The translations under genes and the position numbers were made by a program. Shown here piece after piece: positions 19,293 through 54,136 of a stretch of DNA of 64,000 nt (the first letter of the stretch is position 1; each line of letters opens with the position of its first letter). This DNA is from Stomoxys calcitrans (lineage: Eukaryota; Arthropoda; Insecta; Diptera; Muscidae), in the NCBI RefSeq assembly GCF_963082655.1, contig NC_081553.1, positions 63,664,311 to 63,728,310 of the forward strand, written 5' to 3'. The notes beneath the pieces were generated by a model, which did not search any database, was not told the origin of the DNA, and was given only the letters and a program-made list of their open reading frames with translations.

Positions 19293-22200
19293 TTGCATAC
19301 TCTTAGGGGCTAACGAGAATGGTGATGAGGTTGACGATGACTATGACTATAAGCGAAAATGACGGGAGTTTAAACACAGTATGCAGAGCTATGCATTACC
19401 TCCTAGTAGTAGAGTAGCGTTTAGTTACACGGGATTTACTCAAGTGTGGGAATTTAAAATAACTGTGTATAATTAAATGCAGAGGTAATATAAATTAATT
19501 GTTCGCAATTTGAAGTAGCTTGAAATGAGTAGGAACACATAAATTAGTCGTTTGAAAAGCAGTGGGTTACTTTAAAAAATATTAAAAATTAAATAGAAAC
19601 CTTTTAAAGCCATAAACTCCTAAAAAAAATATTAAAATTATAAAAAGAAGCGCAAAGACAGATAAATGAACGGACGGCACGCCGATAAATGTGTATGCCA
19701 CAATAAGCAAACATTGAAAGGTTACTTTGGCAATCAAAGATTGCCTCCTAACAGGTGTGTGTTGTTAATGCTAGATGTTCTTTTTGGGAGAGATATTGGC
19801 GGTTGGTGGTTTCTTTTCTTACTGCGCTCGAAGAAAGTTACCATGATATGATACAAAGTTATGCTCAATAAGGCATGCTCTACCATAACACAGCTCACTT
19901 ATTAGAGAATAGGTGGAAGCATGTAATCTATTTGGGGCTTAGTCGATTGATGAGGAAGCTTAGAAATCGCAATAGCGCCCCATTACATTTTTAAAAAGTT
20001 TTTTATTTTGCAAATTCAAAGCCTATTGGTTTCAGCTGGACAGAGAAATCCAGCAATTATTTTTCTTTGTTTTGATTCTTGTCAATTTCTCAAGACAAAT
20101 TTTCAGAAAACGATTTATAAGGTCATAGAATAGCTTCTTTTCGCAAGAAAGGACATATGTCGTCTGGTCACTTTTTTCTTCTTTCTAAATCAAATATATT
20201 TTCCAGTCATCTCAAGAGCATAAGCTTTGCAACAATACGTTATAGAGCATGCATTACGAAGAACGTGCCAAAAAATTTTATCTGTTGCTGCATACTTAAG
20301 GGGGTCATTGAAGTTCATAAATGCTAAGCATATCTTAAGGAGTTTAACAAGAGTTCACAATAAAGTTCGGGGGCTCTTAAAAATTTAAGGGAGTAAATGA
20401 AATAGAGGAATAAATAAAAACCTCACTTTAGTATTTAAAATAATTTTTCTTGTATACTTCTAGGGGCATTGAGAAACAAGTAAAGAAAATTTATCAAACT
20501 TGTTTTCATAACGTTAAGGAACAAATAGGTCGCATAACGTTAGGAAGAAAATAACCAAATTCTAATTGCGACACAGATTTTCAGTACAGGCGTCGTTGCG
20601 TCGAAGAATCTAACTAGAAGCTTTGGTATGTAGGTACAAAAATTTAATTGTAGTGTTGCAAGGAGCAAAATAAATTTTTTGAGTGATTCTAATAGTAGAT
20701 AATCGGCACAATTCAAAACTAGGCGCACCATAGAAATAAATTTATTTATTTAAAAAAGACAAAATAAAAAACGTTGTATGCTTTTAGGAGCTAAAAAAGG
20801 AAAAAGCAATTCTTTGGGAGGAAAGCTTTTCATTTAATTACGGTTTGTTTGTTTAAACGGATTTGGATCATACCCGGTATGAATATTGAAAGTCGTAACG
20901 GAGATCGTCGCACGAACTTCCATCCAAATCGGTATAGAATTGTGCTCTGTAAGTGCTCAAAATATCTTTACCACAACCAACCTTTACATAAAAAATTATT
21001 TGAGTTAAATTCTAAGCGCATTACTTTAGGCCTAATGTTGTGGTGGAGGTTATAAAAATCACCTGACCAAACATGAAGCATAACCCCTGTAGTATATATA
21101 ACATATTTTTAAACTATAGCATACTTTAAGGAGGTTAAGTAATTAATCAAAGTTCTGAACTATTATAATTACTTTTGTTTGATAAAAAATAAAACAACAA
21201 CTATGTTACAACAAAATTTTTTTAAATTCTTGGAAACGAGATTTGTGGAAACCGTCCTAGTGTCTTGTAAAGGGTGATTTTTTTGAGGTTAGGATTTTCA
21301 TGCATTAGTATTTGACAGATCACGTGGGATTTCAGACATGGTGTCAAAGAGAAAGATGCTCAGTATGCTTTGACATTTCATCATGAATAGACTTACTAAC
21401 GAGCAACGCTTGCAAATCATTGAATTTTATTACCAAAATCAGTGTTCGGTAACTGGTTAGCAGTTACATTTACATTTATGACGATAGCCATAAATGTAAC
21501 ATGCACTGAAGTCTACTTCTCTGTGGTAAATGGTCACAAAAAAGTAAGAAAATATTTTCCATCCAGTAAAAACATTATGGCTTAAAAAAAATAATTTTTT
21601 TTTTACAAAAATTTAAAAAAAACTAGATCAATATAAATATTCTAAACAGTAAAACTATCAAAATTTCTAAGGAGTCCAAAAAATATTTTATATAATCATA
21701 CCGGAGACTAATGAAAAAGTGCTGCGCACACATTAAAGATATTGGATTAAATTTTTAACGTACGTTTTATGTTCTTTTTCGTTTAAAAAAAATGAGTTAT
21801 AAAATAAGTTAAGTTAAATTAAATCCCGCGAAAACCTAGCGAAACGTACTGCATACCCTCAGGAGCGATTATGAACAAAATTTTAATTAAAAGCAGACAT
21901 TGGCAAGGATAAAGTCTGCTTCAAATTTATTTTAAGTTTAAGTAAAATATACGGCAACAATACGGCTAGAAAGAAAAGTCCAAAAGTGTACACCATAACC
22001 AAAGGAGGTTATAAAAAAAAAAATTATGAAAATTTGGATGCATACTTTGAAGAGACTGTACTGCATTTTTTTATAATTGTTTTTATTTCAACCAAAATTT
22101 CCTTAAAAAGTTAAAATTTTAACGAAAAGTCTGTTTAAAGGACTTAACCTACATAAAAAGCAAATAACGGTGACCATAAGACTAATTCATCTGTATTACG

Positions 22201-22525
22201 GATATAATTCGTACTTTATTATAAAGGAAATTTCTTTTTTTCTTCCTAAAAACAAAACGTCTAAAAAAAATATTTTTTATGATTATTGTTTTTTTTTTTT
22301 TAATTTTTTTCCATACTAGATAAGTATCAAGGCAGACTGTAAAATAATAATTAGTGAAATTTGTAGCATAACCGTAGGCGTACCAATAAAAAGCAACTGA
22401 TTTGACAAGTACTTAAAGTAAGTTATTTTCTCCAAAGGTTTTTGTAACTTTTTTCCCCCTAATTTTTTTGCAGCATAACCTAAGGAGTTTTTAAAAATCA
22501 ACAAACTAAAACATACCTTAAGGAG
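19293..22525 (+). promoter_or_regulatory. motif block 1: eleven or more plus-strand Su(Hw)-like sites
   Basis: Sites start near 19293 (TTGCATACTCTTAGG), 20288, 20326, 20450, 20774, 21117 (TAGCATACTTTAAGGAGG), 21849, 22038, 22364, 22471 and 22508. Most carry a downstream GGAG or GGGG. The 22471 and 22508 sites are only 37 bp apart; the others are 40-730 bp or more apart in AT-rich DNA. Several are diverged (for example GCATAACCTAAGG) and may not bind. Confidence 0.6.
21271..21460 (+). pseudogene. 5' end of a Tc1/mariner-superfamily (IS630-like) element
   Basis: It begins AGGGTGATTTTTTTGAGG, a terminus I associate with an IS630-like transposon common in flies. The leader GACAGATCACGTGGGATTTC follows, then an ATG at 21383 opening MNRLTNEQRLQIIEFYYQ and ending in a TAG at 21458-21460 after 25 codons. 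LTNEQRLQIIEFYYQN is the start of that transposase family's N-terminal helix-turn-helix. The rest of the gene and the right terminus are absent, so only the left end remains. Confidence 0.8.
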
Positions 22526-24098
22526 GTTAATGACTTTTTAAACAATCAAATACAACATTGAAGAGTTCTACCTAATGCATTTCAAAACAAGTCTCATTTT
22601 AGTTTATTCTACAATACCTAAATTAAACTTTTTGTGCACATGTTCAAATTGTAATAAAAACACATTTATTTTGAAGGAATACTTTCCAAAGATATATGAG
22701 TGTGTGTATATGTGCGTGTGGTTTTCACATCAACAACACACAGTTCAAACAATGAACTTCTTTTGTTTCGCATTCCTGGGAATCAACCCACGTGTACGAG
22801 TTTCGTGGTTTTTCATCTAAACAGGTAAAATTTATATGATTTCATTAAAGTGAAATTCTATTTCTTTTGGCAAAAGTACGTGATGAGTTGTTTTTATATT
22901 GCCATGGAATATATTTTGCAATTGAGACACTTCACATGTGTGTAAGATGTGGGAAAAAGTAGAAAGGTAGGACAGCATACAATCATTTGAGAAAGGATAG
23001 GGGATAATCGAAAACAAAGGAGCTAGGCAAACATGTTTAAATAACAATAAATTCTCAATTTGTTTGTATTGTAAGCCAAATTGCTGTAGCCTTCATTTTT
23101 TGAGCCAAAAACAATTTAAGTTTAAACATGTGGGTTAACAAAAAAGGATCACAAAAATTGTTCTATTCCATTTTAAATGCGTTTTTGTCTAGACCTACAA
23201 GCTAAATATTACTCTGAAAATTTTGCTTGCTCTTTGCTTGCTGTGGAATGTTGGGGAATTATTATCATGCGAATAATCGTTGAAAATTTAAATAAAAATT
23301 CCTTACATATGTATTCGCTTGCTGCTGTCTACTTCTGCTAAGATCATGTAGAAACTGTAAATTGCTTTGTTATCCTTGACATTATCCTTAAGACTTGGCT
23401 GCGTCTGCCGCAGAGTGGGTTTGAGGCTTAAGCTTCTCATTGTTCAGCAGGCAGCCTTGGTTACTCTAGACATACAAAGTCACATACGAATATGGTGTGT
23501 TAATATTTATAATCGCCTTCTTAGACGAGTTAAGAAATGGCATTTATTTTTCGCTTTTATTTTTCTTTTTTTTTTGTTTGCTGCTTACTCTTACGACTTT
23601 TGCTGTTTTTTATGTTTTACAAAAAAAAAAACAATACAATGCATTTTGTTCTCATCCCTGGCATTCAGTGAAAAGCCACAAATGTGCGCTTAAAAACACA
23701 TTTTCATAAACACAAAACTTATTATGCCACAAACACTTGGGATGTCTTCTTGTTCTCATTTTCATCGTTATTTAATGTCTTTGGGAACAAATGAAAGCGA
23801 AATATTTTCTGATGCTGCAAAATATTCTCAGAAGTCTGCCAGGCAGGCATTCTTAACCGCAAAGAGCAAGGAACTTTGAAAAATTCACACCATAAGAAAG
23901 CTATAGCAACAGCAACACAAAAGAAGCCACTGAAAAATCAAGATATACCACCCAAGGAGTTGAAACTCAATAAAAACTCGGAAAAACATGGCATATTCAA
24001 GCATATTTTGTTGCTTGTTACTTTTTTTGAGAAAGGAAAGAAAAAAAAAAAATATTTTGCATTAAGTACGATGATAATACTTTTTGTTGCAAAGTATA
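22525..24098. other. AT-rich region, no gene recognised
   Basis: Open frames at 22575-22820, 23367-23709 and 23876-24106 are low-complexity or cysteine/phenylalanine-rich by composition and show no domain. Motif sites are absent between 22.5 and 24.1 kb. Confidence 0.4.
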
Positions 24099-24137
24099 AA
24101 GCATAGCTAAGGGAATTGTAGAAAGCATAATGTTAAA

Positions 24138-24150
24138 GCATACTTTTAGG
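24138..24150 (+). promoter_or_regulatory. exact 13-mer Su(Hw)-like site
   Basis: AAGCATACTTTTAGGAAT; first exact copy of the cluster, 185 bp before a one-mismatch copy (GCATACTTTTGGG) at 24323. Confidence 0.6.
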
Positions 24151-24456
24151 AATACTTTTTAAACATTTTGTTAAAGATAATTTGCTTGAAAGGTTCATTG
24201 GCTTCGAAGGGTTGAATAACACGAGAGGGGAGGTGGAAATATATAAAAAAAATTAATGGATAAGAAAATTAAAAAAATATATATATATATATTTTATATA
24301 TAAGGTTTATAAGCGGCTATAAGCATACTTTTGGGAGTCAATTTTATTTCTTTTAATATTTCGTTTTAAATTATTACAATTTTTCTGTATTTAAACATAT
24401 TTTATATAAGTAAATAAGTACCATTGACGGCTTTATGTTCTATGGCTTATGTTGAA

Positions 24457-24469
24457 GCATACTTTTAGG
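24457..24469 (+). promoter_or_regulatory. exact 13-mer Su(Hw)-like site
   Basis: GAAGCATACTTTTAGGAGTC, in the tandem block; followed by unique T-rich sequence. Confidence 0.6.
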
Positions 24470-25100
24470 AGTCCTTTAATTTTTTTTCCAATTTTTGTTT
24501 GTTTCTCTTTCGAGACGAGCTCAATGATAGGAGATTTTCTTTGCAAGTGGAAAAGGAAAGCCAGAGATCGCAACATACACCAACCACTATGGGACGCGTT
24601 TCGTAATTTGATTACAATTACTCATCAGTCATACTTTATTTTTAATTTTTTTAAAAATTGGATTTTTGTGTGTGTGTGCGTGTGCGGTAATTTTAACAGT
24701 ATTTATAAATATATGGAGAGTTTACAGATTTAAATGAAAGGAAAACTTTCAATTGCATAAGATAATTAAAAAAAGATTTAAAAATATTTTTAATATAAAC
24801 TACAGCGTACCAGAAAATTTCTTAATAACTACTTAATTTTGTAATTTATAAAAGAATTACCCCAGATCATAGAATAGCATGCATTCCAAAACGAACTTCA
24901 AATATTTTCCTACGCTGCTTAGTCGTTTAATTAATGCTGATAACATTTATGAGAATTTCAGTACAAAAATGCGCTTCCTAATCCTAGAGGCGAAAATGTA
25001 TTAGCAAGCCCTCTAGAGTGATCCTTAAGCTTCATCTTAATGGATTTTTTCTCAATATATCAATACTTATACAACTATATGTCATATATTTTACATTGTA

Positions 25101-25113
25101 GCATACTTTTAGG
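25101..25113 (+). promoter_or_regulatory. exact 13-mer Su(Hw)-like site
   Basis: TAGCATACTTTTAGGAGTAA; heads the run of four further copies at 84-145 bp spacing, of which the 25222 copy (GCATATCATCAGG) is the most decayed. Confidence 0.6.
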
Positions 25114-25860
25114 AGTAAATTTAATTTCTATTAATATCCTTTTTTAATTACGTCAATTTTTGTGTGTTTAAAAATATCTTATTAAAATAAGTAAGATGTA
25201 TATGATGTTTACTTTATATTGTAGCATATCATCAGGAGTCAATTTAATTTAATTTAATTTTACTTAAAAATATTTTATCAAAAATATGATATATATTTTA
25301 TATTGTACCATACTTTTAGAAGTCAATTTAATTTCTATTAACATTTTTTTTATTGCAATTTTTGTGTGTTTAAAAATATTTTATTAAAATGAGTAAGAAT
25401 CATTAGCGGCTATATGATGTATATTTTATATTGAAGCATACCTCTAGGAGTAAATTAAATTTCTTTTCATATCTTTTTTTAATTAATGCAACTTTGTGTG
25501 TTTAAAAATATTTGATACAAAATATATAAAAAATTTATTTTGTATCATTAACGGTTATATAACATTTATTTTGTTATGTAGCATACTTAAGGGGTCAATT
25601 AATTTTTTTTTAATATTCTTTTTTTAATTTTTTCCATTTTTATACTGAAAAATATTTTATAAAAATAAAAAATGATCACAAACGGCAGAGGTCAATTTAG
25701 TTTATTTTAAATTTGTTTTATTATTGCATTTTTTTTATTTTCAAAATATTTTATAAAAATTAAACAAGTTATTTTTTTAAATATTTTTCAAATTACTGAA
25801 ATTTTTCAGCGTTTAAAAATATTTTATAAAAAAATAATGGTAAATAACGGCTTATAATGT

Positions 25861-28394
25861 ATATAAATATATTAAACAAATGTCAACAAGCGAAGTGGTT
25901 AAATTGCAAGAATTTTTCTTTTGACATAAAAGAATCCAAGATCATTCTGGTAGAAACATGTCATTTTGAAGTCTACTGTGGTGAGGTGCATTATCAGTGT
26001 CCCTGCTACAACATTTAAAGTCAAGAAATACAAAAGGAGTTGAATCGGTTTTTAGATATTTTGAACTTTTGGTACGGGAAATAATTATAAAACGCATCCT
26101 AGTATCCAATATTCATTTTTTAAAGCAAACAGAACCTGATGAAGTTATGCTATGGGTAAACCGATTTCGTTTTCAGGTGTTGTCATATTCAAAATTTCTG
26201 CCTTATTCATATTTGTTTGCTTAGTTTTCCATCGGCACAATCTCAGAGCAGAAGTAATAGTTTAAGGTTTGATTTCATATAAAACTTAAGCCTGGGACCA
26301 TAGTCCCACATACAAAGTGAATGTAGATTGCAAATGATTTAACCCCAACATATAAATTACTATTATTTTCATTTTGTGTAATAGCCCCACCTCTATTTTT
26401 CTGCAGTTTTGTTTGCCATCATTATCAAGACAAGATTTTTAATTAAATTTATGGTTAATTTTGTTGAGTTGCAAATCAGGCATTCCTCTTTCTCCTCCTT
26501 TAGCCGCTATGAACATAACAGTTGTAATAAATCTTTAAAACGAATCATTTCCTTAAACCATAAATAAAGTACTTTCCATACTTAACCTAGCCCATCGTCA
26601 TTCAATTTCGAGACCCACTCCTCCTGCTGAACTCCAACTCCTACTTCTCCCAACACCACCGCCCACAGCCTAAAAACATTAACAAACCAAAACGACAGAA
26701 AGACGGACAGACGGACAGACAGACAGGCAGACATCAATATAAGACACTCTCAAAGGAAAATCATGGCAGAAAATATTTGCCACTATGATGCCTCTGTGAA
26801 GTGGAGAGTGTGCCAGGGAAATTGAAAAAACATCATCACCAATATCATAGCCCACCAACAGCAATGACTATTGGGAGGAAACTGTTATGGTGATACTTGG
26901 TTTGGTAACATCATCCACACTTCATCATGATTTTGGTGTAGTAATTCATGGAACAGCCAAGCCAGGGCCATACATTTCCATTTCGCATTTGGAGGAAATC
27001 GACCGTAAAGCAAAATGTACCAGGAGCAATAACAGAAGCACCATCATCACCAACCACATTCAAAGGCTGTGTGTTTAGGCAAACACACCCTTTTTTCTGT
27101 TTGCTTGGATCCCTAAATGGAAAATAAATACATTTCTTTATTTCACTTGAGATCGAATTGATGGGCGAGTGCATGTGTCGGTGTGTGTGTATGTGTGTGT
27201 GAAAGCCAAGTTAGAAAGACAATAGTCATAAACACATTAAATTAAATTGATTTTCAATTTTCTGCCTTTATATTGAGGATTCGGGTAGGTCGAAAATAGT
27301 CATACCATGGATGGTAATGAAGATAGGCAAATGGAGATGCCATACATAATAAAAAAAAACATACACAAAAATTAAAAAAAAAAATCGGTATAGAAAATTT
27401 TTTTTCAGAATTGTCCACAGGAAAAAAATGTTCACAAATTTTTTAACAAACTTTTCTATAAAAAAAATTAAAAACGTTTGACAAATTTTACTAAAAAATT
27501 TGTAGAACATTCAAGTCGTTTTTTTTTATATAAAAATCAACTTTTTTTTAATTTCCCACAAAAATTGGCGGAAATTTTTTCTGGCAACTCTCTTTATTGC
27601 ATAGTTGCTGCCACTGACACTTGGTCTGAGATTTCCCACTATCAACAGCGTCCATAACATTTGGGATGGGATTTTGTGCAAATTAATGACTGGTTGGGCT
27701 TATTGTGCTACCAATAACACCAGCCACTCCACGCTGTCTGGCTGCTTGTCCAAGCTTGCCCCAGAGTATTTGAGTCTGTCGAAAATGAAAAATTTATTAT
27801 TTGTTAACATTGTCGTTTTAGGCAACATTACTACAAAAATCTCTTGTTTCTGTTTTATTTGTTGTTACTGCTGCTGCTGTTCAATAATCCATTAAAAATT
27901 ATTCTGCTCCCAATGTTTTTCCACAACAATCACTACAATGTTGTTTTCTTTTCTCTGTGAAGGCATTCCCCTCGTCTGTCTTTTGGAAGCAATAAATTGT
28001 GTATGAAATACTAAATATTTTACGAGTATTGCCTTTAAGCCTGACATGGACTACATTTAGGGAGTTGGGTTATTTTGTTTTTAATGTAACTTAAAGTTTT
28101 GTTTTTCGTAATGGTTGATAGGTGGGGAGGGTTGAATGGCAAACAAGCCATGTCAAGTCAAATGTTTGCAAATTTAATTCACATTCAAATCAAAATGCGA
28201 ACAAATAAAGCTGCCAATAGATATTTGAAAGGGAAATAAATTTTAAAGTTTTTGTTTTCCATGTAAATTAAAAAAGATTAATGATTGTTGCAGAGATTTT
28301 TGCCATACATTAGTCGTAGTTGGTTTAAATATAATTGCCAGAAATTTTAAACAATTTTAGGGGTGCGTTTGGGGATAGATTGAAAAAAAAAATG
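25861..28394. other. Mostly unique AT-rich region; microsatellites only
   Basis: Visible are a GACA/GACG run at 26698-26730 and a GTGTGTGT run near 27178-27200. One candidate motif of the cluster, GACTACATTTAGGGAG (two changes), starts near 28049. Open frames such as 26887-27078 and 27605-27895 have no recognisable domains. Confidence 0.4.
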
Positions 28395-28479
28395 TTGCAT
28401 ACCTTAGGGGGTTCATCATTTATTGAAAATTATATTTAAAACAAAATAAATAGACAATACATAATAAAATTAAAAAAAA

Positions 28480-29000
28480 AATACTGTGTCAAATTCCAGC
28501 GACATTGGGTAATAAATGCAGTTTTAATGGGCTTAAGACCCTTAATCGGCAGACCGGTCTATATGGCAGCTATATCTGAATAAAGTCCGATCTGAACCAT
28601 ATTTGAGCGGATATCGGGCCGCTTTAATCAACTCACTATTTAAAATTTCAGCGAAATCTAAAATAATTGCGACTTTTTTGGTCTCAAGACCTTAAATCGG
28701 CAGATCGGCCTATATGACAGCTATATCTAAATATGGTCCGATCTGAATCATATTTTAGTCAAATGTCGAAAGGCTTAAAACTACTCACTGTTTCCAATTT
28801 TATTAAAATCGGATAATAAATGCGTCTGCTACGGGCTTAAGACCCTAAACCAGCATATTGGTGTATATGGCAGCTATATTTAAATATGGTCCGATATGAG
28901 CCATATTCGGTTTGAACATAGTGGCCCTGTTTCAAATCTCAGTGAAATCGAACAGAAAATGCGGCTTCTACGGGCTTACGATCCTAATTCGCCAGATAGG
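28480..29000 (+). repeat. B-family repeat fragment
   Basis: Three to four diverged units carry TATATGGCAGCTATATCTGA, CTTAAATCGGCAGATCGG and AACTCACTGTTT-like blocks at about 150-bp spacing. The right end joins LINE-derived, more GC-rich sequence at about 29,000. Confidence 0.75.
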
Positions 29001-29585
29001 CACGCCTAGCTTCCTGAAGATGTAGGATGGGACTTACACCGAGCGCTCACGAGAAGGTGGAACTTCTGATGTAGAAGCATTTTCCGAGCGGCCAGGAAGA
29101 AGTCGGCGATCCAGATATCGTAAAACCTACATATGAGACCTTGGCGGTTGACCTCATCACAGATATCGTTGACTTCCCGGCCATTTATATCCGAGGGACC
29201 TGACGGTATTATCCTAACATTGTTACAGGAGTCCCTTGGGGTCACCTTTCCCTGGCTAGAACAAATTTTCCGGGCGAGCCTGACTAGGGTCTTCATACCA
29301 TGGAATGAGGTCAGGGTAATCTTTATCCCGAAGGCGGGAAAAATAAACCACAGCACCACCAAAGATTTTAGCCCCATTAGTCTGTCATGCTTTAACTCAA
29401 AATACTGGGAAGACTTATAGGCTTGAATGAGAGAGAGGGACTGACGCCGGCATAACACGCATACCTCGAAGGCAGATCAATGAAGACGGTCCTTCACGAA
29501 GTGGTACGGGAGCTCGAGACATCCCTCCTGCAGAAGGCCTTCTTGGGTATTGAGGGGGCTTGCAATAACTTGGATAAGCCACTAA

Positions 29586-29629
29586 ATGATGATTGGATGT
29601 ATCAATGGCCGTATACATCCAATCATCAT
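29586..29629. repeat. perfect 17-bp inverted repeat at LINE deletion junction
   Basis: ATGATGATTGGATGTAT (29586-29602) and its exact reverse complement ATACATCCAATCATCAT (29613-29629) flank CAATGGCCGT. This hairpin lies exactly where the RT core is missing and the C-terminal part resumes. Confidence 0.9.
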
Positions 29630-30148
29630 CCAGGCCAGTGAGACCAGTGTTGACCTATGGAGCACTGGTATGGTGGAGGGCCGTGAATAAGAGGACTCAA
29701 GCAAGGAAGTTCGAGAAGATCCAGAGACTGGCCTGTGTAGAAGTCATAGGGACAGTGAGATCTGCACCTCAGGCAGGTCTGGAAGCGATGCTAGATATGC
29801 AGCCCATTGGGGCCTGTATTCGGAACTGTGCCACCAAATTCGCGCTTAGGGTGCGAACAGAGTGTGAGATTAAAGTCGAGCCGGGATTGTCAATGCGATA
29901 AAGATTGTGAGTGCGAGAAAACTGGTTACATACACGACAAACTTTCTTCTGGCATGAAAATAAGCGCCAATAAGCTCGGCTCGGCTCCGCTCGGCATCAG
30001 CTCTCACTCTGTTCGCACACTTAGGCTGCGGTAGCTTGGCATGTTGAAGGAGGAGAGGTGCGGCCACAGTTCCATCCTGGATGCGATTGATGCGGAGAGT
30101 AGACTGAGGAGGATTTCCGAGTACCCCCCAGTACCGATTGGGGAAAGA

Positions 30149-30680: not shown

Positions 30681-31041
30681 CTACCTCCCTCGAGGCCTTG
30701 TGTTCGAGGAAGGTGAGGTCGAGGTGTGTGCATGCATGTCGGTCTGCATGGAAATACCGCACAATGACTTTTGCAGGAGTTGTTTTTATGAGGTTGAGGA
30801 GGAGACTAGCGAGCACTTGTTCTGTTCATGTTCGGGTCTGCAGGGACGCAGGCTCTCCTTTTTGAAGAGGCTCTCCTTCTGCGATCTAATCTCGCATCTC
30901 TGGGATATCTCCTGAGATTTGTGAACGAAAAGGGATGGTTCCGCCAGAGGGTGCGATAAGATCCGACGAAGGTACATACGTTCTTGCGTGAGGGATATGC
31001 ATTTTCACACCTCGCTCTGGTTCTCCACTTTCCCGTTTCTT

Positions 31042-40975: not shown

Positions 40976-40999
40976 AATTTTTTAAAAATTGAACCCTAC

Positions 41000-41900: not shown

Positions 41901-41919
41901 AGAATAAATGTTGGAATGT

Positions 41920-42530: not shown

Positions 42531-42539
42531 CTACACCGA

Positions 42540-43345: not shown

Positions 43346-43349
43346 TGTT

Positions 43350-43362
43350 GCCTACTTTTAGG
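43350..43362 (+). promoter_or_regulatory. exact 13-mer site, GCCTAC form
   Basis: TGTTGCCTACTTTTAGGCTT; includes TTGCC and AGGC, giving dyad symmetry as in block 3. Confidence 0.6.
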
Positions 43363-43364
43363 CT

Positions 43365-44265
43365 TGTCTAATTTTATTTTATGTATAAAACCTCTTCACT
43401 TATCATATGCACCTCGTTCTTTGCATACCAATAACCCTACGCAAAAAAACACACCCCGACGTACCTAACTTAAATGTCCGTCTATCTGGCTTTTGTGTGT
43501 CTTTTTCGCCCCATATCTCTCCATTTCCCTCTGCCCCATCTGGGTATGGGTATAAAAAGTAAATCTGTGAAAGGACATTATATTTTGCACACTTTGAAAT
43601 TCGTGCTTATATTTCTTTTACACAGCATTTCGGCCATTCATTCATGGCATTTCAAAGCAATTTCCACTTGACATGGAGGAGGTAAGGTCCCTACAAAACA
43701 TCAGAGGCACTAGCTGGCCAGCATAAGAACTGACTGAATGTTTGTCTGTTGGCTATCCGTTTGTCTGTCGGCGTCTTAACCATTATCATTTCCAATGCCA
43801 TTGACCATGAAGTTGTGATTTGTTCTTGTTGCTGTTGTTGTTCTTGCTTTGCCAATACTAGAACATTAGAACGTGTTGTTTGCCTTTAATGTTCTTTGCC
43901 TTTGTCCGTCCCTCTATATTTTGCCATGGAGTGGCTCATACTACTTTATTTGATTTGCTTGGTTTCCTAATGTCTGCCTTTCGAAATGTGCATGTTAAAG
44001 CTATGCATTCTTTGAAAAATTACTTGGAAAAGAAAGTAAAAGTTTGTCTAATGTGTACGTTGGCACATTATAAAAATAGGTGGAGAACATTCGTTTTTTG
44101 GGAACTTGCTGGTGGGTTTAGATATAGAATTTTTGATTGCAAAAGTTTGTCATATTTCCAAGGAAACTAAATTATTTAGTTATTTGCCCAAGAAATGCAT
44201 AACTTGGAATTTAGTAAGAAGTCTCTGTTCATTTTTAAAAACAATTCTAAGGAATATACTTAAAG
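43365..44265. other. Unique region, no gene recognised
   Basis: TTGCATACC at 43421 matches the gypsy-type core but lacks the AGG extension. Open frames at 43474-43671 and 43880-44170 show no domain. Confidence 0.35.
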
Positions 44266-44379
44266 CTAACTCCCAAAAGAATGCTAAGATTTTAAATTTT
44301 TATCAAAGACATTAAACAATACAAGAAAATTCTAGAAGCCAGGATGCTCTCTCCAAAAACCAGATTAAGCAAAACATAT

Positions 44380-44520
44380 TTTTTAAAACAGACTTTGAAA
44401 AAATGCCATGATTTTTGATTCCTTTTTTCCAAAAGCCTCTGAGAAAAATTTATATTGTTTTAGAAAAATCAGAGAAAATATTGAAATTTAACTCCCAAAA
44501 CTATGCTATGATTTTTTCCA
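44380..44520 (-). repeat. about 100-bp tandem duplication with decayed motif
   Basis: GACTTTGAAAAAATGCCATGATTTTT (44391-44416) recurs as ACTCCCAAAACTATGCTATGATTTTT (44491-44516), with AAAATATTGAAATTTAA-like and TTTTTTAAAACA flanks. One copy keeps a recognisable motif, the other has lost it. Confidence 0.6.
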
Positions 44521-45254
44521 AATGCCTTCCAAATTATGAAGCTATGTTAGCATTATACATTTTTTGCTTTTTCGTTGTCTTTTATGTCATATTGCCTTAA
44601 TGACAATTTTGAGACACATTTGAGTTTTATATTTCTTAACATAGGCTAACTGTGTAAAAGAACAACCATAGGACTATATTACCTGTTCTAACAACGTAGT
44701 AATGCAAAATGTGGCACATACCTGCAAAAAATAAAGAAAATATTTATTAGAATTGTGGGAAAATTAATTTTTATAAATTATGCATAGAACATTTTTGTTA
44801 ATTCTTTAAAAATAAGCATATAAAAATTTGAAGAAACTCAAAAAGTAAATTACTGTTAAGAAGCCCATTTAAGTATGAAATAAATAATTTAATTTAAATT
44901 TTTTCCAATATATGAAAATTTCACTAATTTAAATTAAAATAATTGAAAAAATTTAATTTTAAATTAAATTAAACCCCTTAAACTATGTAACAATTTTATC
45001 AAAATGAAAATAAAAGCCGTCTACATGCAAAAGCTAAAAAAAAAATATTTAAAAAAAATCCCTTAAAACTATGCAATACATTTTTATACTTATTTTGCTC
45101 TTAATTTTTCTAGAAATATGGTCTTTTCTAATTTTAATTCAACTTTTTGGAATAAATATAAGGAAAACAAACGTCTTACTTGCCCCCTAAAATATGCAAA
45201 CATTATTAAATTAAATTTATTTCTGATTTTTATGTTTATCCTAACCTAACCTAA

Positions 45255-45470
45255 TTAAAAATAAAATGGCTGAAATTGTACATGTGGTGTTTTGTTACGA
45301 CTACCAACATGCGTGGTAAGTATTGCCGAAATCGATGTATAACGTGATAAAGCCCCATATAATCCGATCTCTTGATTGGTTTTCTACGGCCCCAAGAGCT
45401 ATAATTTTTGGCTGATTAAGCAGAAAGTACACAAGTGCCCTTTTACTAAATTCATGTTTGTTTCCAAGAT
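45255..45470 (+). repeat. A-family repeat fragment
   Basis: GGCTGAAATTGTACATGTGG, TTTTGTTACGACTACCAAC and CCCCATATAATCCGATCTC match internal A-family units; both ends are lost. Confidence 0.65.
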
Positions 45471-45749
45471 TCGGTTTAGAAAATCTACCACGTTATTTCT
45501 AGTTTCTCCTCTTTGGTGATAATATATATAAAAAAAACGAAAATGTCCCTATTTGTAATAAAATTTGTTTAATAATAAATATTTTAAACTTAAAAAAATA
45601 TATATATCCCCCAAAACTATGCAACAAAAAATAGTTTATTTTCAACTTTTGTGGTAATATTGAAAAAAGGCATAAATTTGTTCAAATAAAACTTAAAAAA
45701 TTGTTTCTTAACTTTTTTCAAATACTTTTATGAAATTTTTCTTATTTTT

Positions 45750-46385
45750 ATACCCTCCACCATAGGAAGGGGGTATGCCAATTTCGACATTCTGTTTGTA
45801 ACACTTCCAAATATTGGTCTGAGACTCAATACAATATATATATCTTGACATTTTGGGCCACTAGAGGGCGCAATTCATATACGATTTGGCTGTAAAATAG
45901 TATGTAAAATTACATGAGGTGTTTTGTTTTGACTTCCAATAAATGCGCCAAGAATGGTCCAAATTGTTTCATAACCTGATACAGATGCCATATAAACCGA
46001 TCTCGCTATAGGGCGCAATTCTTTTCCGATTTGGCTGATGTTCAATTTTGACTTCCAACAAGTATGCTAGGCATGGTCCAAATTGGTTCATTTCCTGACA
46101 TAATCTTCTTGAGTCGAAAAAAGAAGGCGCAGTTGCAAATGCATATTTACCCATGAACATTCTATTTAGGAACAAGGGCAAGAAGGCGCAATGATTTGGC
46201 TGAATATTTAAACGTGGTATTTTTTATGACTTTTAATAATCAGGGCAAGTACATTCCATCTGTAGGTATATCTCCTGTATATTTGAAAGTCATTCAAAGA
46301 ATATTTCAAATGCAAACCGAATCGTATATACCCCTTTAAGATTCAGCCCGGTCGAACGTAACGCGGTTTAAATTTAATTTGCATT
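45750..46385 (+). repeat. A-family repeat copy with both ends
   Basis: It starts ATACCCTCCACCATAGGAAG, GGGGTATGCCAATTTCGACA, continues through about three internal units (GGGCGCAATTC, CATAACCTGATACAGATGCC, CATATAAACCGATCTC) and ends in CAGCCCGGTCGAACGTAACG near 46343-46362, a decayed form of the TTCGGCCGGGCCGAA terminus. It lies within the motif cluster between the 45608 and 46444 sites. Confidence 0.75.
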
Positions 46386-46462
46386 AAAAAATAAAAATTA
46401 TAACATGACAAAAAAAACTCAAAAAGTAAACACACTACAAAAAGCCCCCTAAGCTATGCAAC

Positions 46463-47160
46463 ACAAAATTAAATTGAATTTCCTTTCAACTTTTATGGCA
46501 AATAATTAAAATCAATTTCATTCTGCAAATATTATGTCATTATTTGACTTTGTCCATTTATACAAAAGTGAATGGGAAGTCATCGAGTTGAGTGTGCGTT
46601 CCCAAACAATGTCAAAAATTGCAGCAATTGTGGTGACATTAATGACATGAATGTCATTAGACGACAAACACCTTTGTCATATGTTTTCTAAATAGTCTGC
46701 AAATTGTTTATCTGTCTGGCTGGCTGTGGCTCCTACTCATTGTTCCAACTGCTACTTTGTGTGCTTTTTCCGACTGTCATTCTTATGGAAGTTCCAAAAA
46801 TGTTCAAATAGAAGGTAGTGCATTTGTTTTTATTAAGCCACCAAAAACCAGACTAACATCCGCAATCATCATATAATGGATTAAGTATTCATAAAAACGA
46901 TAATAAAAGGACTATAGAATTTCGACATTAAATGCAATGACGGAGAAATTAGTGAGGATTAATATGATGCAGACACAAGCAATCAAAAAAAAAATGAGAA
47001 TAATAACAAAAATTGTCTGGCACGCGTTGCTTTCCCTTTAGGCTATGAAGATAAAAAAATTTAATAATTTAATTTCAATTTGTATTATATAAACTCCAAA
47101 GAGAATTGTTGCAATTTTTGTCCACAAATTTGGTCAAGGGAGAGGATAAGCTTAATTATC
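46463..47160. other. Unique region, no gene recognised
   Basis: A decayed motif TTGCTTTCCCTTTAGGCT starts near 47028. Nothing else is recognised. Confidence 0.35.
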
Positions 47161-47904
47161 ATATAATTAAAGCATACCTTTAGGATAGGATAAAATATTG
47201 CTTTTATAAGATTTAAAAAATATAAGGGCAAATATCATTAGAATGGACTTTTCATAAAATTGCTTTGAAATTTTAATGAAAATTTTTAATGAAAATTTAA
47301 TGAAAATTTGTCAAATTATGTAGGTGTAGAATATTTAAATAACCAGTCACAAGCTAAAAGGTTTTTTGTTTTTCTATTTGTAATAGGAACGGAGAACGCT
47401 ATGGTCTGCAGCCGGACAACAACCGATTGTAAGAATATTTAAGTAAAGCGAAGTATTGTGTACATACATCCTGAAAATTTAGTCTGCTGCTATCAGCTAA
47501 CACTGTCTGCTGATATTAAATTAAAAAATTTAAACTTTAAAAAAAAATCAATTTTTTTAACTTTAAACAATAATTGCGACATTTGCCATGTCTGAAAAAA
47601 ATGGCAATCTTAGACGTTAATTTGTTGTTGTTAATGTTGTCTTGATGTACAATTGGGTATAAGTAGCTTCCACATAAACCATTCTCGTAAGTTGAAATTT
47701 TTAACCCCTTTTTTGCTACTTTTCATAAATTTTTTAACTTATATTGGAAAAATTGAGTTTCGCATTATCCTTCTAAGGCAAAAACCAAAAATTTAGAAAA
47801 AATATTTCGATTATGTGTAAAAAATAATATGAGTTATTTTTTTAAATTTCTACTGCATATAGTCTAATGGCTTGCAAAACAAAATATATTGCATACTTTA
47901 AGGC

Positions 47905-50340
47905 GTTTCTATAATTTATTTTAAACTTAAAAAACTTATCTTAAGTAACATTTTCTTTTTTTTCAAAGAAAACATTTTTTCTCCATTATTATTCCACCTT
48001 TATTTCCAATTCTAAGGTAAATATAATTCACCAAAGAAAACTTCTTTGTAGACTTTACTTATCCAAAGAAAAATTAATTACATTTTCCACTGCTGCTACT
48101 CAATTCTCTTTATTCTCCTTGTAATTTGAGTTTTCATCGAAGAAAAAATAGAAAACCCAAGTAGAGTCTTAAATTACAAAATATCCAGACAAACTCGATT
48201 TTTTTCTCCCCCCTACCAAAGAACTCCATATCAAACGATAACTAATTGTAGAATATAATGAAGAAGACTATGGAAAACATTATTTAATCATTGCCAATAA
48301 TCAAAGACCAATAAACAGAAGTCTTAAAGCAAGTGAAAAAAGAAGCAAAAAGGATAAGGAATAAAAGCATGGGCAAATAAAAAAAAAGAAAAAACTCATC
48401 ATTTATTTGAAAATGCCAACGACCGTAGCACCCTAGTCTGATAATATTCATTCAATAAAATTTAACCAAATGCAAGGGAAAAAAGGGAAATTTTATTTAT
48501 GTGAGCAGACATTAGAAAAAGTAAAAACAAAAACAATAAGATCAATGGCGAAAGCATAAATTTCATCAAGAAAATAAGAGAAAAAAATGTTTTTATAAGT
48601 TGCCATCCTTATGCTTGTCTTGGCCATATAGAATCCAAGACAAGTCGAGCGCAAGTAACAAATTTGGGATTTGATAAAAATTGCATCCTTAATAACATTT
48701 AAAAGGAGGAGCTGTTTGATAGCTTATATGTGTCTATGTCTATATACCTCCCATTGTTCTCTCTCACTCGTATTAAAGAACGAGAAAGTATTTTAAATCA
48801 ATAGAAAATAATCTCAATAAGGTTGTGCAAAAATTTCGCTAACAATAGATTAAAAGTGAACTTAAGCTTATGGGAGGGGGGAGTAGCGATGTGTTTTTTC
48901 TTCTGTCTTGTAGTTGTTTCGCTGCCAAACCTCTTAGGATACCAGACAAAGCATAAGATTGGTGTCTACTTTTAGGCGCCTTAGCATAAATCACTTTTAC
49001 TTGAGTCCTTGCGGCTCGGAAGCTCTTAACAATGTTATATACATCGTTTCTGCAACTTCTTAATACTGTTGTTGCTGCTGCCTTAATGATGATAACAATA
49101 TTCCAACCCCATACAACCAGAGGTTAGGCTAGACCCTCTCTGTGGCTGTCTGTCGTTTCTTAGGGACTGTATGAATGAATGGCAGGCCTTGAATTTGACT
49201 TGGGTATGTGAAAAGAAGTGCACCGCCAATAATGTCAATGTCATTAAATCAATGTTTAAAAAGGTATTCATATCGCCACATAAAGTCCCAAAACCCAAAG
49301 ATAAGAGTCTAAAGATATTGCAGAGGAATCCCGACAATCACCCAGTAGTCAGCGAGACAAGTCTGTAAAAAGTCAGTCAGCCAGCCAAGTTTTTCAAACT
49401 GTCTGTTGGCTGGGTGAGGTGGTGCGGTGGCGCGCTTCATTCATCTGTGCTTTTGAACCGCCAGTTTTTGCCTTACCCAGTCACTTCAGTTCATTTTTAG
49501 TCGATGTCATTGTCATGGTTTTTGGAGTAGCAGCCAGCAGCCAGCATCCCAAGCGAAAGTTTTGCCAACATAATGGCACTGCATTTCAAGATGCTATCCA
49601 ACTATTTTGTTTGCTTTTATTGTTGTTGTTAATGTAAACTTCCAGCAATTCAAATCAGACTAAGCTGCAGAGAGAACATGCTCGGTCTTGGGGTTAAGGT
49701 TCATTCCTCAAATATGCTGCCTGCCACTGCTGCTGATGTGTACTTTTGTTGGCATCTACCAACATCATCATGTCATAGAATAGCAACGACAACGATGACA
49801 TTTACAAGTACGTTGTACATCCAACATACTGATGATGATGATGATAGATCCCAAACAGATAAGAGCGACCCTTAGGATCCTTTGCTTAAAATTTATTTGT
49901 CAAGCAGTAAGCAAAAAAACAAAAAACAGATATTAAATTTTTAAAGGATTTGTTTGCAATCAATGGAGAAAATTCAATAAAACTTCTATGACAAAAGGTA
50001 TCTACAAACTCACACGCGCGCACGCACACACACAGAGATCAGAGAGCATTAGAGATTTTAGTTTTCAACAAAGGACAGCAAGGACAAATGTCAATATGCT
50101 AAATATTAAAGATGATTAGGAAATATAACAAAAGAAACAACAGCAATAGCAATAGCCTGGTAAATAAAACTCAAATGAATATTTCATAATGCTTTGTCTC
50201 GTTTCAGATTTTCCAACAATAAAATATTAAATAGGTTATGCAGAAATTATTTGTGCAAAATTTCTTTTAAATTCTTGATTTCTTCTCATTTATGGTAATA
50301 TCATGCACAAATATTGATGGTTATATAAAAATTAAACTTT
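47905..50340. other. Mostly unique region, no gene recognised
   Basis: Simple repeats (TGATGATGATGATGA near 49830; ACACGCGCGCACGCACACAC near 50012). Open frames at 49083-49875 on both strands overlap and lack domains. Confidence 0.35.
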
Positions 50341-50454
50341 TAGGCATACTTTAAGGGGGAGAAATAATTTAAAGAATATCCTGAAGGCTGAAGATGTAAT
50401 TTTAGTTGAAAATATAAAATAAACTAAAATCAAATAAAACCAAATAAAAAAACG

Positions 50455-50629
50455 AAAATAAAATAAAATAAAACAAAATAAAAAATAAAAATAAAATAAA
50501 ATAAAATAAAATAAAATAAAATAAAATAAAATAAAATAAAATAAAACAAAATAAAATAAAATAAAATAAACTAAAATAAAATAAAATAAAATAAAATAAA
50601 ATAAAATAAAATAAAATAAAATAAAATAA
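50455..50629. repeat. (AAAAT)n microsatellite
   Basis: About 175 bp of AAAAT pentamers with a few C or extra-A interruptions. It abuts the head of a SINE at 50,630. The minus-strand FYFILFYFIL frame is a product of the repeat. Confidence 0.95.
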
Positions 50630-50895
50630 GGAGGCCACCATAACGCAGAGGTTAGCACCTCCGCCTATGACGCTGAATGCCTGGGTTCGAATTCGGGCGA
50701 GACTATCAGAAAAAAATTTCAGCGGTGGTTTTCCCCTCCTAATGCTGGCAACATTTGTGAGGTACTATGCCATGTAAAACTTCTCTCCAAAGAGGTGTCG
50801 CACTGCGGCACGCCGTTCGGACTCGGCTTTAAAAAGGAGGCCCCTTATCATTGAGCTTAAACTTGAATCGGACTGCACTCATTGATATGTGATGA
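50630..50895 (+). mobile_element. tRNA-derived SINE, near full length
   Basis: GGAGGCCACCATAACGCAGA (A box region AACGCAGAGGTTAGCA), GCCTGGGTTCGAATTCGGGC (B box), TTTCAGCGGTGGTTTTCCC, CTAATGCTGGCAACATTTGT, AAAGAGGTGTCGCACTGCGG, CACGCCGTTCGGACTCGGCT and GAGCTTAAACTTGAATCGG. It lacks the GCCCCTGTTTCTT tail of the 14.5-kb copy. The junction with the pentamer array is immediate. Confidence 0.85.
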
Positions 50896-51110
50896 ATTGT
50901 GTGAATTTTTTTTAATTTGTTTGAAAAGTATTGCAGCTTATAAAAAAACTAAAGTAAAATTAGGGCATAATTTTAGGAGCGAAATGTAAATGAAATATCA
51001 CATCAAAAAGTAAATCAAGTATAAAAATTAAATATTCGAACCCATTAACGACGATTAAGTAGCAAAATACCTAAGTACAAAGCTATCTCACAAAAATAAT
51101 CAAGTTTGGA

Positions 51111-51227
51111 AAAAGGTATCCTAATGAAATTTGGAACAGCATAAAATGAAAAAGGTATCCTAATGAAATTTGGAACAGCATAAAATGAAAAAGGTATCCT
51201 AATGAAATTTGAAACAGCATAAAATTA
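51111..51227. repeat. 39-bp tandem repeat, three units
   Basis: AAAAGGTATCCTAATGAAAT, TTGGAACAGCATAAAATGA starts at 51111, 51150 and 51189. The units are nearly identical (one G/A change), so the expansion is young. Confidence 0.95.
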
Positions 51228-52030
51228 ACAAAAATGAAACTACAAAAAAAAAAAATTCGTCATATAGATCATGTTTTGGGGGAAAATTGCGTTGCTTAAA
51301 TCGACAAAAAAGGTTCTCAAAATACGAAGTATTGAGATTTTTCAAGGTTTCTAAATAAAATAAGTAAATTTATGACAATAAGTCTGACGTTTTTGACGAG
51401 AAGTACGATTTTATTCATTTAGTCATTAAAATTCACTTTTCTTCACTAAATGGAAGATATTAAGAAAATTATTGTTTTTGTTGTAAAGGCATAGAGACAC
51501 AGGAAATAAAAAGATTGTTGTTATTTTTTTAATCTTTCTTTAACATTTTTAAAAATTTCTTTTTAAAAATGTTTTTAAAAACAAACAACAAAATGCTACG
51601 CCTATATATATGCTCTAAATAATGAATACATGAAATGTCTTAAAAATCGGAAAAACCAATCAATGCATACTTTTAGGACGAGAAGAAAAACCTTTTACAT
51701 CTGTTTGGCTTTTAACAGCCGGTCATGCAACTATTAAATACATTAGAGTCTTTCGAAAATATTTTTGTTTTAATACGAATTGAAAGTCCCGACCATATAA
51801 AAAATATAAGTTTCTTGTTAAGGACAAGTGGACATTTTTTCGTCTCAAAAAGTGCCACCTTAGACTTTTGGAAATGACATCATAAAGTAGTAAATATTTG
51901 TTGATAAAATAAGGATCAAACTTGGGGCCTTGGCAGCATGGTCGCCCCCAAACTTTTACGCTTTTATTATACACTGTAAAATATTTTTATTTTCTTAAGT
52001 GATATAACTTTTAAATTTAAATTCAGAATT
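51228..52030. other. No gene; one exact motif site
   Basis: AT-rich unique DNA around the site at 51665. An open frame on the minus strand at 51723-51974 shows no domain. Confidence 0.35.
51665..51677 (+). promoter_or_regulatory. exact 13-mer Su(Hw)-like site
   Basis: CAATGCATACTTTTAGGACG; isolated, not in a tandem repeat. Confidence 0.6.
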
Positions 52031-52219
52031 AAAGCACACTTTTGGGGGAAATGAAAGGTATATCTTGATTGCTGTAGATGTATATTTTGTTAAAGCATAC
52101 CAAAGAGTAAATAGAGTAAAACAATAAAATATTCTTAATAAAGAAGAATTTACAAGAGAAATAGAAAACAATGCATATTTCTAGGGGGTGGACGGAAATT
52201 ATAGCATACCTCAAAGTCT

Positions 52220-54136
52220 GACATAAACGTGTTTATTTTTAATTAAGAAATATACAAATCGTATGGCTAAGGCTATTAAAAACTAAAAATTTTATTTTGG
52301 GAAAGAGGTTGAAGACATTTGTTTCTCTGTGGAGTGCTGCCGAAACATCCGAAACATACCCTTTATAAAAATAAAGTTTTCCGAAAATTTTCAAAGGAAA
52401 TAAAATTTGGAGAAAAAGTTTACTAAATTTCAGAATAAAATACAAATTGTATAAATATTTAAAATTTTTGAAAATTTCTTTTATTCAATATGAGATATAT
52501 AACAAAGACTATTTGCATATTTTAATTTCATTATCCGCATTTTTGAAAGAACTTGAGTTAACACTGTTTTCTGCAGATATCAATCAGACCGGATATGCTT
52601 GTGTGTGGTTGAATTTAACTTTGTTGTAAGCTTTTAAAATTTTAAATAAAGTCTTTGTATTGGTGTTCATTTCGAAATGATTTCTTAAGGATATGTGAAA
52701 AATGATGGTACCATGCAAATTTCGAAAATTTCTCGTTTATTTGCTAGACCCTTGAGTTTCGTTTCTGTTTTTTTGGCATATTTATTAAGGGCAAACAACC
52801 ACAAGAACAAACTTTAAATAAATATCTGTTTTTAATGTTATATGCATGGGATTTTTGTTCGTTTTTTTTCATAATGCATATATAACATGGTTTTGATGAG
52901 TGAAAGAACAAACAAAAGAAATCAGAATTCACACTTATATGCATAAGAAGTATAAAGTGGTGTGTATGTCTTTTTTTTTTGAAAATTGCCAAACCACAAG
53001 TCAGACATAAGATGAAGGAAACAAAAGTATATGCCCTCTCAAAAAAAAAACAGAGACTCAAAGAATCTTAAACACTTGAACCCTATCTGGGGCCGTATAC
53101 ACACACACCACACATGGCCATAAATAAAATGGTTTCTAAAAAAATAAAACCAATTGGGATCAATAACCCAGAAGTAGCAACACTAAAAAGATATCCCAAA
53201 AAAATCTTAAAAAATGACACAATATGTTTAAAAAGTTTATGTGCTTCTTTTACAAATTTAGAAAAGAAACCTTTTCTCGAAAGAAAAAAAAAATGTTTCA
53301 TCTTGACGCAGGCATTGCAAATTGACACAACCGACATTTGTTTGAACCCTCCATATTTTTTTTTTTTGATTTTTTGGGACAAGAAATCAATGACCACTTA
53401 ATTGAAGTGATGAGAAATCTTACAAGGCCCGCACATTAAATTAAAAACCAATGACTTTAAGGATAAAAAAAGTCTAAAAAAAACACCCTAAAACAGGTAA
53501 ACAAATTTTTACCAAACACATATATAGGACATTAACCTCACTGAGCTGTAATTGCTTTCGCAGAAACCTTCTTGTTTTTTAAATCTTACTTGCTACACTT
53601 TTAGGAGACTTTGGCAAACTTATGGCCAGGACAGATGAATGAATGGAGGGACAGACAAACAGGCTCAGTGTCTGAGGACCATATTGTTTGGTTATAATAA
53701 AATAATGACTTTTTCTTTAATTAAAAGCAATTAAGTTATTTAAACAATTGCCAAGAAACGAAATTAAGAGATTGTTTGAAAAGTAAAATGAAAGAATTAT
53801 GATGACAAAAATGTCTATGGAGCTGCTGGCTGCCTTAAACAACATCAGTGCCTACAAATGACTGACGGCCTTTAAGCTTAATTGAATTTAATTTACCAAA
53901 CAATTGTTTAGTGAAAACAAAGAGAACTTTTAGATGGATGGCAGCAACACACAGAAAAGTAATAATTATAAGGTCAGAATGTTGATTTGCTTCAAAAAAA
54001 GAAGGGGATATAGAGCCAGAGGCTAGAATTTTGTACAGACGGATGATTGATATTTTAAAATATTTATTAAAAAAAATTATGCATAAGACTAATATAATTT
54101 TTTTATTTTAACTAAAATGTCATTGAAATATTCTTC
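52220..54136. other. AT-rich region, no gene recognised
   Basis: Overlapping open frames on both strands at 53083-53401 come from A/T runs. The last motif-like sequence of the cluster is at 53590. Confidence 0.35.

What the first reader, a model, noticed from the sequence alone, without database searches (positions are those of the whole stretch)
19293..53610. About 60 Su(Hw)-like sites dispersed over 34 kb
GC(A/C)TACTTTTAGG recurs far beyond chance: eleven exact 13-mers (24138, 24457, 25101, 32572, 38084, 38428, 39774, 42096 minus, 42518, 43350, 51665), about thirteen with one change, and some 35 weaker. The core and its A/C ambiguity agree with the Drosophila Su(Hw) consensus YWGCMTACTTHY. 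The gypsy insulator has 12 such sites in a few hundred bases; ordinary endogenous sites are single or few. A gypsy-free cluster this large would be a new kind of insulator, boundary or chromatin-organising region in a fly genome.
Basis: partly seen in the sequence, partly recalled or inferred. Interest (0 to 1): 0.9.

Follow-up and report, generated by a model that had tools for sequence, protein, structure and literature searches.

The report
Long Su(Hw)-site array in headcase intron
A 33-kilobase stretch inside a giant intron of the fly gene headcase carries about fifty matches to the recognition sequence of the chromosome-organising protein Su(Hw), most of them pointing the same way in long runs, which suggests a large landing platform for that protein; whether the protein really sits there has not been tested.

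Summary
In detail: 11 exact and 13 one-mismatch 13-mers (0.24 expected). A matrix made only from 15 published D. melanogaster in vivo Su(Hw) sites finds 50 sites >=12 in the window, 49 of them at 18.8-52.3 kb (null 6.7), and 29 of 29 >=16 there (null 0.7). Sites picked by the 8-base core alone mostly carry the GG of the long in vivo motif (23 of 28): endogenous type, not gypsy type. After dropping 8 duplicated sites, average similarity between sites is confined to about 30 bp: not a decayed repeat. The genome (1.07 Gb, fly) encodes su(Hw), and the window lies in a roughly 295-kb headcase intron. Sites form 5 orientation runs, 21 expected. The motif is enriched and clustered elsewhere in the genome too, so this is an extreme case of a wider habit. 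Most likely a multivalent Su(Hw)/CP190 platform for insulation, pairing or looping within the intron. Occupancy, conservation and function are untested. New variant of a known kind.

The parts
18834..52187 (.). Su(Hw)-site array: 61 external-matrix sites >=10, 49 >=12, 29 >=16
   Evidence: compared with flanks and random stretches
18834..39788 (+). orientation block A: 27 sites >=12, all on + (two weak - sites of score 10.4 lie within it)
40106..42383 (-). orientation block B: 7 sites >=12, all on -; holds a tandem duplication (41920-42120 / 42190-42393) with 3 sites in each copy
42515..43364 (+). orientation block C: 2 sites >=12 on +
44270..46462 (-). orientation block D: 7 sites >=12, all on -
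47888..52048 (+). orientation block E: 6 sites >=12, all on +
19292..19309 (+). Su(Hw)-type site, score 19.3
20287..20304 (+). Su(Hw)-type site, score 21.3
20773..20790 (+). Su(Hw)-type site, score 16.7
21116..21133 (+). Su(Hw)-type site, score 16.8
24320..24337 (+). Su(Hw)-type site, score 19.0
24454..24471 (+). Su(Hw)-type site, score 19.7
25098..25115 (+). Su(Hw)-type site, score 22.3; locally duplicated with 25305, 25433, 25578
25578..25595 (+). Su(Hw)-type site, score 19.1
28394..28411 (+). Su(Hw)-type site, score 21.2
32569..32586 (+). Su(Hw)-type site, score 17.2
34050..34067 (+). Su(Hw)-type site, score 18.6
35646..35663 (+). Su(Hw)-type site, score 16.6
38081..38098 (+). Su(Hw)-type site, score 23.2
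38425..38442 (+). Su(Hw)-type site, score 21.4
39076..39093 (+). Su(Hw)-type site, score 17.4
39771..39788 (+). Su(Hw)-type site, score 21.4
41920..41937 (-). Su(Hw)-type site, score 19.6
41960..41977 (-). Su(Hw)-type site, score 17.9
42094..42111 (-). Su(Hw)-type site, score 21.0
42231..42248 (-). Su(Hw)-type site, score 22.0
43347..43364 (+). Su(Hw)-type site, score 23.4
44270..44287 (-). Su(Hw)-type site, score 17.2
44492..44509 (-). Su(Hw)-type site, score 16.7
45183..45200 (-). Su(Hw)-type site, score 17.2
45608..45625 (-). Su(Hw)-type site, score 23.2
47888..47905 (+). Su(Hw)-type site, score 20.4
48961..48978 (+). Su(Hw)-type site, score 20.7
50341..50358 (+). Su(Hw)-type site, score 17.4
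52031..52048 (+). Su(Hw)-type site, score 18.0
1..64000 (-). the whole window lies in an intron of headcase (hdc), transcribed on -; flanking coding exons, recognised by profile only, at window coordinates -5181..-4981 and +290400..+290498
   Evidence: PF16002 positions 33-99 and 3-35

Best explanation
A long homotypic array of endogenous-type Su(Hw) binding sites in a roughly 295-kb headcase intron of a fly, probably a calyptrate. Shown: the sites, their long-motif character, density and orientation runs, the absence of a shared repeat unit, and a su(Hw) gene in the same genome. Inferred: Su(Hw) occupies many of them (in D. melanogaster strong motif matches predict constitutive occupancy) and brings CP190 and Mod(mdg4), making a multivalent platform. 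Inferred mechanism: the platform works as a wide insulating and pairing domain that separates regulatory DNA on its two sides, between the distal headcase promoter and the downstream exons, while its coherently oriented sites help it pair in register with the homologous chromosome or with other Su(Hw) clusters. I put 0.85 on binding by Su(Hw) and 0.5 on this insulating/pairing role as the main effect.
For: Exact motif counts. Published-site matrix: 49 of 50 sites >=12 and 29 of 29 >=16 in the interval. Sites chosen by the 8-base core alone carry GG at +11,+12 in 23 of 28 (window) and 23 of 32 (second locus); leaving out the exact 13-mers by which both loci were found (11 and 7), 12 of 17 and 16 of 25. 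Average similarity limited to about 30 bp. Sites >=14: 40 in 33.6 kb here, 2 and 4 in the 60-kb flanks, 0 in 30 kb of random stretches. su(Hw) gene. Orientation runs: 5 for 49 sites >=12 against 21 expected. Literature: strong matches predict occupancy; four reiterated sites block enhancers about as well as gypsy; multimerised Su(Hw) sites show self-interaction in bypass tests and fly boundaries self-pair head-to-head.
Against: No occupancy, contact-map or expression data, and no second species for conservation. In 5 aligned pairs of local duplicates the motif is not significantly better kept than flanks (106 of 124 against 457 of 577; p = 0.13). Clusters occur elsewhere, so headcase may not be special. 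In D. melanogaster Su(Hw) sites are not systematically at gene boundaries (passages), and Su(Hw) sites alone are not sufficient for long-distance pairing: the gypsy element failed in that assay. Words for BEAF, CTCF and GAF are fewer inside than outside. The orientation runs could come from two inversions and local duplications, and they are weak at the second locus (21 runs against 28 for 55 sites, p 0.04; not significant at higher cut-offs).
Confidence: 0.5

Rival explanations
1. Bound but largely inconsequential: a near-neutral cluster that grows by point mutation and small duplications in a gene-poor, AT-rich giant intron.
For: Local duplications carry sites; motif not significantly better kept than flanks in duplicates; other clusters exist in the genome.
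Against: The 60 kb to the right (8 sites >=12) and two 5-kb samples (1 and 0), all in the same intron, are far poorer; 41 of 49 sites remain after dropping duplicates; non-random orientation.
Confidence: 0.2
2. A lamina-contact modulator: Su(Hw) bound inside a lamina-associated giant intron locally keeps it off the nuclear lamina.
For: In D. [quoted passage not shown] the sampled stretches inside are AT-richer, GC 0.307 against 0.372 outside.
Against: No lamina data for this species; composition alone is weak evidence.
Confidence: 0.15
3. A silencer: the array recruits Su(Hw) mainly as a repressor of headcase in particular tissues.
For: Su(Hw) is described as a repressor in the ovary and testis and at promoters in D. 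melanogaster (abstracts listed).
Against: The array is intronic, about 24 kb 5' of the next recognised downstream exon and about 238 kb from the recognised N-terminal exon; no expression data.
Confidence: 0.08
4. Sites of a different zinc-finger protein with a similar motif.
For: The binding protein was not identified directly; C2H2 proteins are numerous.
Against: The match extends over the long published Su(Hw) motif, also at a second locus; su(Hw) is encoded.
Confidence: 0.04
5. A decayed satellite or transposon family that carries the motif.
For: Simple tandem arrays lie just outside the interval; transposon-like fragments are present; besides the recognised duplications, a few pairs share short flank stretches, for example 42-43 bp at 81-88%.
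Against: For 41 sites the average identity beyond about 30 bp is at background (0.294 and 0.301 against 0.295 and 0.294); 0 of 50 sites >=12 lie in DNA shared with the second locus.
Confidence: 0.03

Closest known systems
Endogenous D. melanogaster Su(Hw) binding sites (Adryan 2007, PMC2374998; abstract, passages and section 10 seen)
   Same: Same long motif: GC(A/C)TACTTTT core, T/A before it, GG after it
   Different: There about 60 bound sites in 3 Mb, 40 of 41 motif-bearing fragments with one match, and six pairs of motif hits under 1 kb apart; here 49 motif sites >=12 in 33.2 kb, median spacing 469 bp. The matrices and cut-offs differ, so the ratio is approximate
gypsy retrotransposon insulator
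   Same: Many Su(Hw) sites together
   Different: gypsy has 12 sites in about 340 bp, mainly upstream and central modules; here sites spread over 33 kb and mostly carry the downstream GG
nhomie/homie boundaries of even-skipped (PMC13405320; abstract and Discussion part 1 seen)
   Same: Su(Hw) sites in orientation-dependent boundary pairing
   Different: One Su(Hw) site per boundary; here a long intronic array without boundary evidence
Su(Hw) sites within lamina-associated domains (PMC2991331; passages seen)
   Same: Multiple Su(Hw) motifs within one domain, set by DNA sequence
   Different: Lamina association unknown here; the passages speak of peaks within LADs, not of dense arrays

Membership tests
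Endogenous-type Su(Hw) binding site | match to the long in vivo motif beyond the core | tested here: met
Endogenous-type Su(Hw) binding site | Su(Hw) protein encoded in the genome | tested here: met
   C-terminal stretch 78% identical (E 9e-30) and a second match 61% over 41 residues; fingers 83% over 64 and 68% over 63 residues, two later finger pieces weaker (56%, 34%).
Endogenous-type Su(Hw) binding site | in vivo occupancy by Su(Hw) | not testable with these tools
   needs ChIP or CUT&RUN
Endogenous-type Su(Hw) binding site | conservation of sites between species | not testable with these tools
   the tool reports no relatives held for this genome
gypsy insulator | about 12 sites within a few hundred bp, mainly lacking the downstream module | tested here: not met
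   median spacing 469 bp; GG at +11,+12 in 23 of 28
tandem repeat or satellite | sequence shared by the copies beyond the motif | tested here: not met
   41 sites, after 8 of 49 were dropped as duplicates; local duplications and some short flank matches do exist
dispersed transposable element | copies with shared flanks at other loci | tested here: not met
   0 of 50 sites >=12 in DNA shared with C1:37.895-37.975 Mb; only this one other locus was compared
insulator / TAD boundary | enhancer blocking or a contact boundary | not testable with these tools
   needs transgene assay or Micro-C

The most novel reading that the evidence does not exclude
Long, orientation-coherent Su(Hw) arrays are a distinct class of architectural element in this fly lineage: multi-kilobase directional platforms in giant introns that pair homologues or distant loci in register and partition the intron, a fly counterpart of directional CTCF arrays that arose without a repeat.
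Probability: 0.25. Interest if true: 0.85.

Novelty: new variant of a known kind. Interest (0 to 1): 0.6.

Why it matters
Endogenous Su(Hw) sites in D. melanogaster were reported as mostly single, in contrast to the clustered sites of gypsy. A fly genome with naturally dense, directional Su(Hw) arrays inside a known developmental gene would make it directly testable whether site number and orientation set insulation strength, homologue pairing or lamina contact, and how architectural sites accumulate as introns grow.

Tried and rejected
Considered early: a splice-site-like motif or the promoters of a small-RNA gene array; no Rfam match at gathering scores and no tRNA, and the long Su(Hw) motif explains the sites better. 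Repeat and transposon origin was tested and rejected. The constraint test in local duplicates was inconclusive. Other words (selected stretches): CA repeats 0.31 inside against 0.17 per kb outside; BEAF, CTCF, GAF and Zelda words fewer inside. Pfam on ten open frames of the window gave one match over its cut-off, a transposase piece. A pattern hunt for the headcase domain, recalled from memory, found nothing convincing; the Pfam search did. A genome-wide unbiased map of sites was not obtained: the exact-motif search was answered once (100 of 2049 places listed, C1 only), the longer patterns never.

Literature: searches were answered, 79 and 83 timed out, 10 was rejected. In the titles and abstracts that I saw, none described such an array; the listings were partial (for example 15 of 1,659, none of those 15 holding the name suppressor of Hairy-wing), so I make no claim that it is absent from print.
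Full report
Observation. To avoid circularity I built an 18-position matrix from 15 in vivo D. melanogaster sites of Table 1 of Adryan 2007 (PMC2374998; passages). Of that table's 20 rows I left out four without a good match and one that repeats another row. In the window the matrix finds 50 sites >=12, 49 of them at 18.8-52.3 kb, and 29 sites >=16, all there. Sixty fourth-order Markov sequences gave means of 6.7 (maximum 13) and 0.7 (maximum 3).

Motif identity. The published in vivo consensus is TGT(T/A)GC(A/C)TACTTTT(G/A/C)GG with a short G/C/T-rich end; another paper describes an AT-rich upstream module, a core and a CG-rich downstream module over about 26 nt (passages). When sites are chosen by the 8-base core GC(A/C)TACTT alone, 23 of 28 in the window have GG at exactly +11,+12, and 23 of 32 at a second locus, C1:37.895-37.975 Mb. 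Both loci came to notice through exact 13-mers, which contain that GG. Without those (11 in the window; 7 at C1) the figures are 12 of 17 and 16 of 25, still far above the few per cent expected from base composition. Flank columns outside the 13-mer also score above random positions: for 48 sites none of 5000 samples reached the observed means; for the 19 strongest p is 0.003 upstream and 0.015 downstream. The downstream GG sets these sites apart from gypsy sites, which consist mainly of upstream and central modules.

Not a repeat. A self-comparison of the interval finds few duplications with sites: at 25.1/25.3/25.4/25.6 kb, 31.2-31.6 kb, 39.2/39.3 kb and 41.9-42.1/42.2-42.4 kb (three sites per copy), and one stretch shared by 31.0-31.3 and 50.6-50.9 kb with two sites below 12. 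The flank comparison adds 24.3/24.5 kb to the 25-kb family, and some short matches, for example 42 bp at 88% between the sites at 38425 and 39076. I dropped 8 of 49 sites as duplicates. For the 41 left, pairwise identity is 0.680 in the motif and 0.417 in the 12 bases before it, but 0.294 and 0.301 further out, against 0.295 and 0.294 with shifted registers, s.d. about 0.004 (the downstream value is about 2 s.d. high). None of 50 sites >=12 lies in DNA shared with the C1 locus. In five aligned pairs of duplicates the motif is 85% and the flank 79% identical, p = 0.13: no firm sign of constraint.

Orientation. The 49 sites >=12 form five runs (27 plus, 7 minus, 2 plus, 7 minus, 6 plus); 21 are expected and none of 20,000 permutations was as low. 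At >=10 there are 11 runs for 61 sites (26 expected), at >=16 five for 29 (12.6 expected, p 0.001). Tandem duplicates share orientation and contribute to this. At the C1 locus runs are only mildly fewer than expected (21 against 28 for 55 sites, p 0.04; p 0.06 and 0.11 at higher cut-offs). Two inversions in a one-way array would explain the pattern here as well as function would.

Genome context. The own genome has 1.07 Gb and the window is C2:63664311-63728310; the exact 13-mer occurs 2049 times against 43 for the reversed control. Of the first 100 listed places (C1, up to 42.6 Mb), 43% of neighbouring distances are under 34 kb against 8% for uniform placement, yet no 34-kb stretch starting at one of them holds more than 5, against 11 in 27.5 kb here. 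With the published-site matrix, sites >=14 number 40 in 33.6 kb here, 2 in the 60 kb to the left, 4 in the 60 kb to the right, 0 in 20 random 1.5-kb stretches of C1 and C2 (3 at >=12), and 41 in the 80 kb of the C1 locus, which I picked because one search showed a cluster there. Clustering is thus a wider habit of this genome and this locus an extreme case among what was sampled.

The binding protein. The fetched piece there holds zinc fingers 83% identical over 64 residues and 68% over 63 to the recalled sequence; two later finger pieces are weaker, 56% and 34%.

The gene. A coding stretch left of the window is the C-terminal part of headcase; of 7 hits, named ones are an uncharacterised protein of Musca autumnalis (72% over 56% of the query), proteins of Sarcophaga and Glossina, and 'Headcase protein-like' of D. 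rhopaloa (60% over 8%). That the fly is a calyptrate is inferred from these hits. Pfam Headcase (PF16002) has four matches, all on the minus strand: positions 33-99 at window -5181..-4981, two more further left, and positions 3-35 at +290400..+290498. Positions 33-99 and 3-35 adjoin in the profile, so no exon of this domain need lie between them, and the window sits in an intron of about 295 kb. The exons rest on profile matches, not on transcripts. The near edge of the array is about 24 kb 5' of the next exon. Two 5-kb samples further along the intron hold 1 and 0 sites >=12.

Function. Reported for D. melanogaster: strong matches predict occupancy and sites are mostly isolated; four reiterated sites block enhancers about as well as gypsy; multimerised Su(Hw) sites interact in bypass tests and boundaries self-pair head-to-head, although the gypsy element alone did not support long-distance pairing (Discussion part 1 of 2; abstract); Su(Hw) density within LADs lowers lamina contact. 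Against an insulator reading, Su(Hw) is not systematically found at gene boundaries there. My inference is a multivalent Su(Hw)/CP190 platform that insulates and pairs within the headcase intron (0.5); a bound but inconsequential cluster is the main rival (0.2).

Verdict. The claim of a wholly new kind is tempered by clustering elsewhere in the genome, and occupancy, conservation and function remain untested.

Noticed in passing
G000:C1:37895001-37975000 (L009-L016): A second dense region: 55 sites >=12 and 32 >=16 in 80 kb (Markov null means 8.1 and 1.2), with many repeat-like open frames; orientation less coherent.
   Followed up: partly
   Followed up: no
G000:C2:63649537-63649668 (-), window -14773..-14642: The headcase domain match here contains an in-frame TAA. 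Readthrough in hdc mRNA is known (reference title; that the stop is UAA is recalled), so this may be that stop or an exon edge.
   Followed up: no
window 16807-18361 and 54151-55083: A 29-bp satellite array and an (AAAAT)n array lie just outside the two ends of the site array.
   Followed up: no
window 42001-46000: GC skew turns negative (-0.114, -0.048) roughly where most sites are on the minus strand, as an inversion could give.
   Followed up: no
window 5139-5474: Transposase fragment (Pfam Transposase_1, E 3.5e-7), mariner-like by recall.
   Followed up: no
L013:62-5299 (+): A 1746-residue open frame in the second cluster that looks like a retrotransposon polyprotein by eye (family not searched).
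   Followed up: no
L001 and L005: Two of the first eight exact sites of the genome have three more sites >=12 within about 1.3 kb, so small groups are common too.
   Followed up: no
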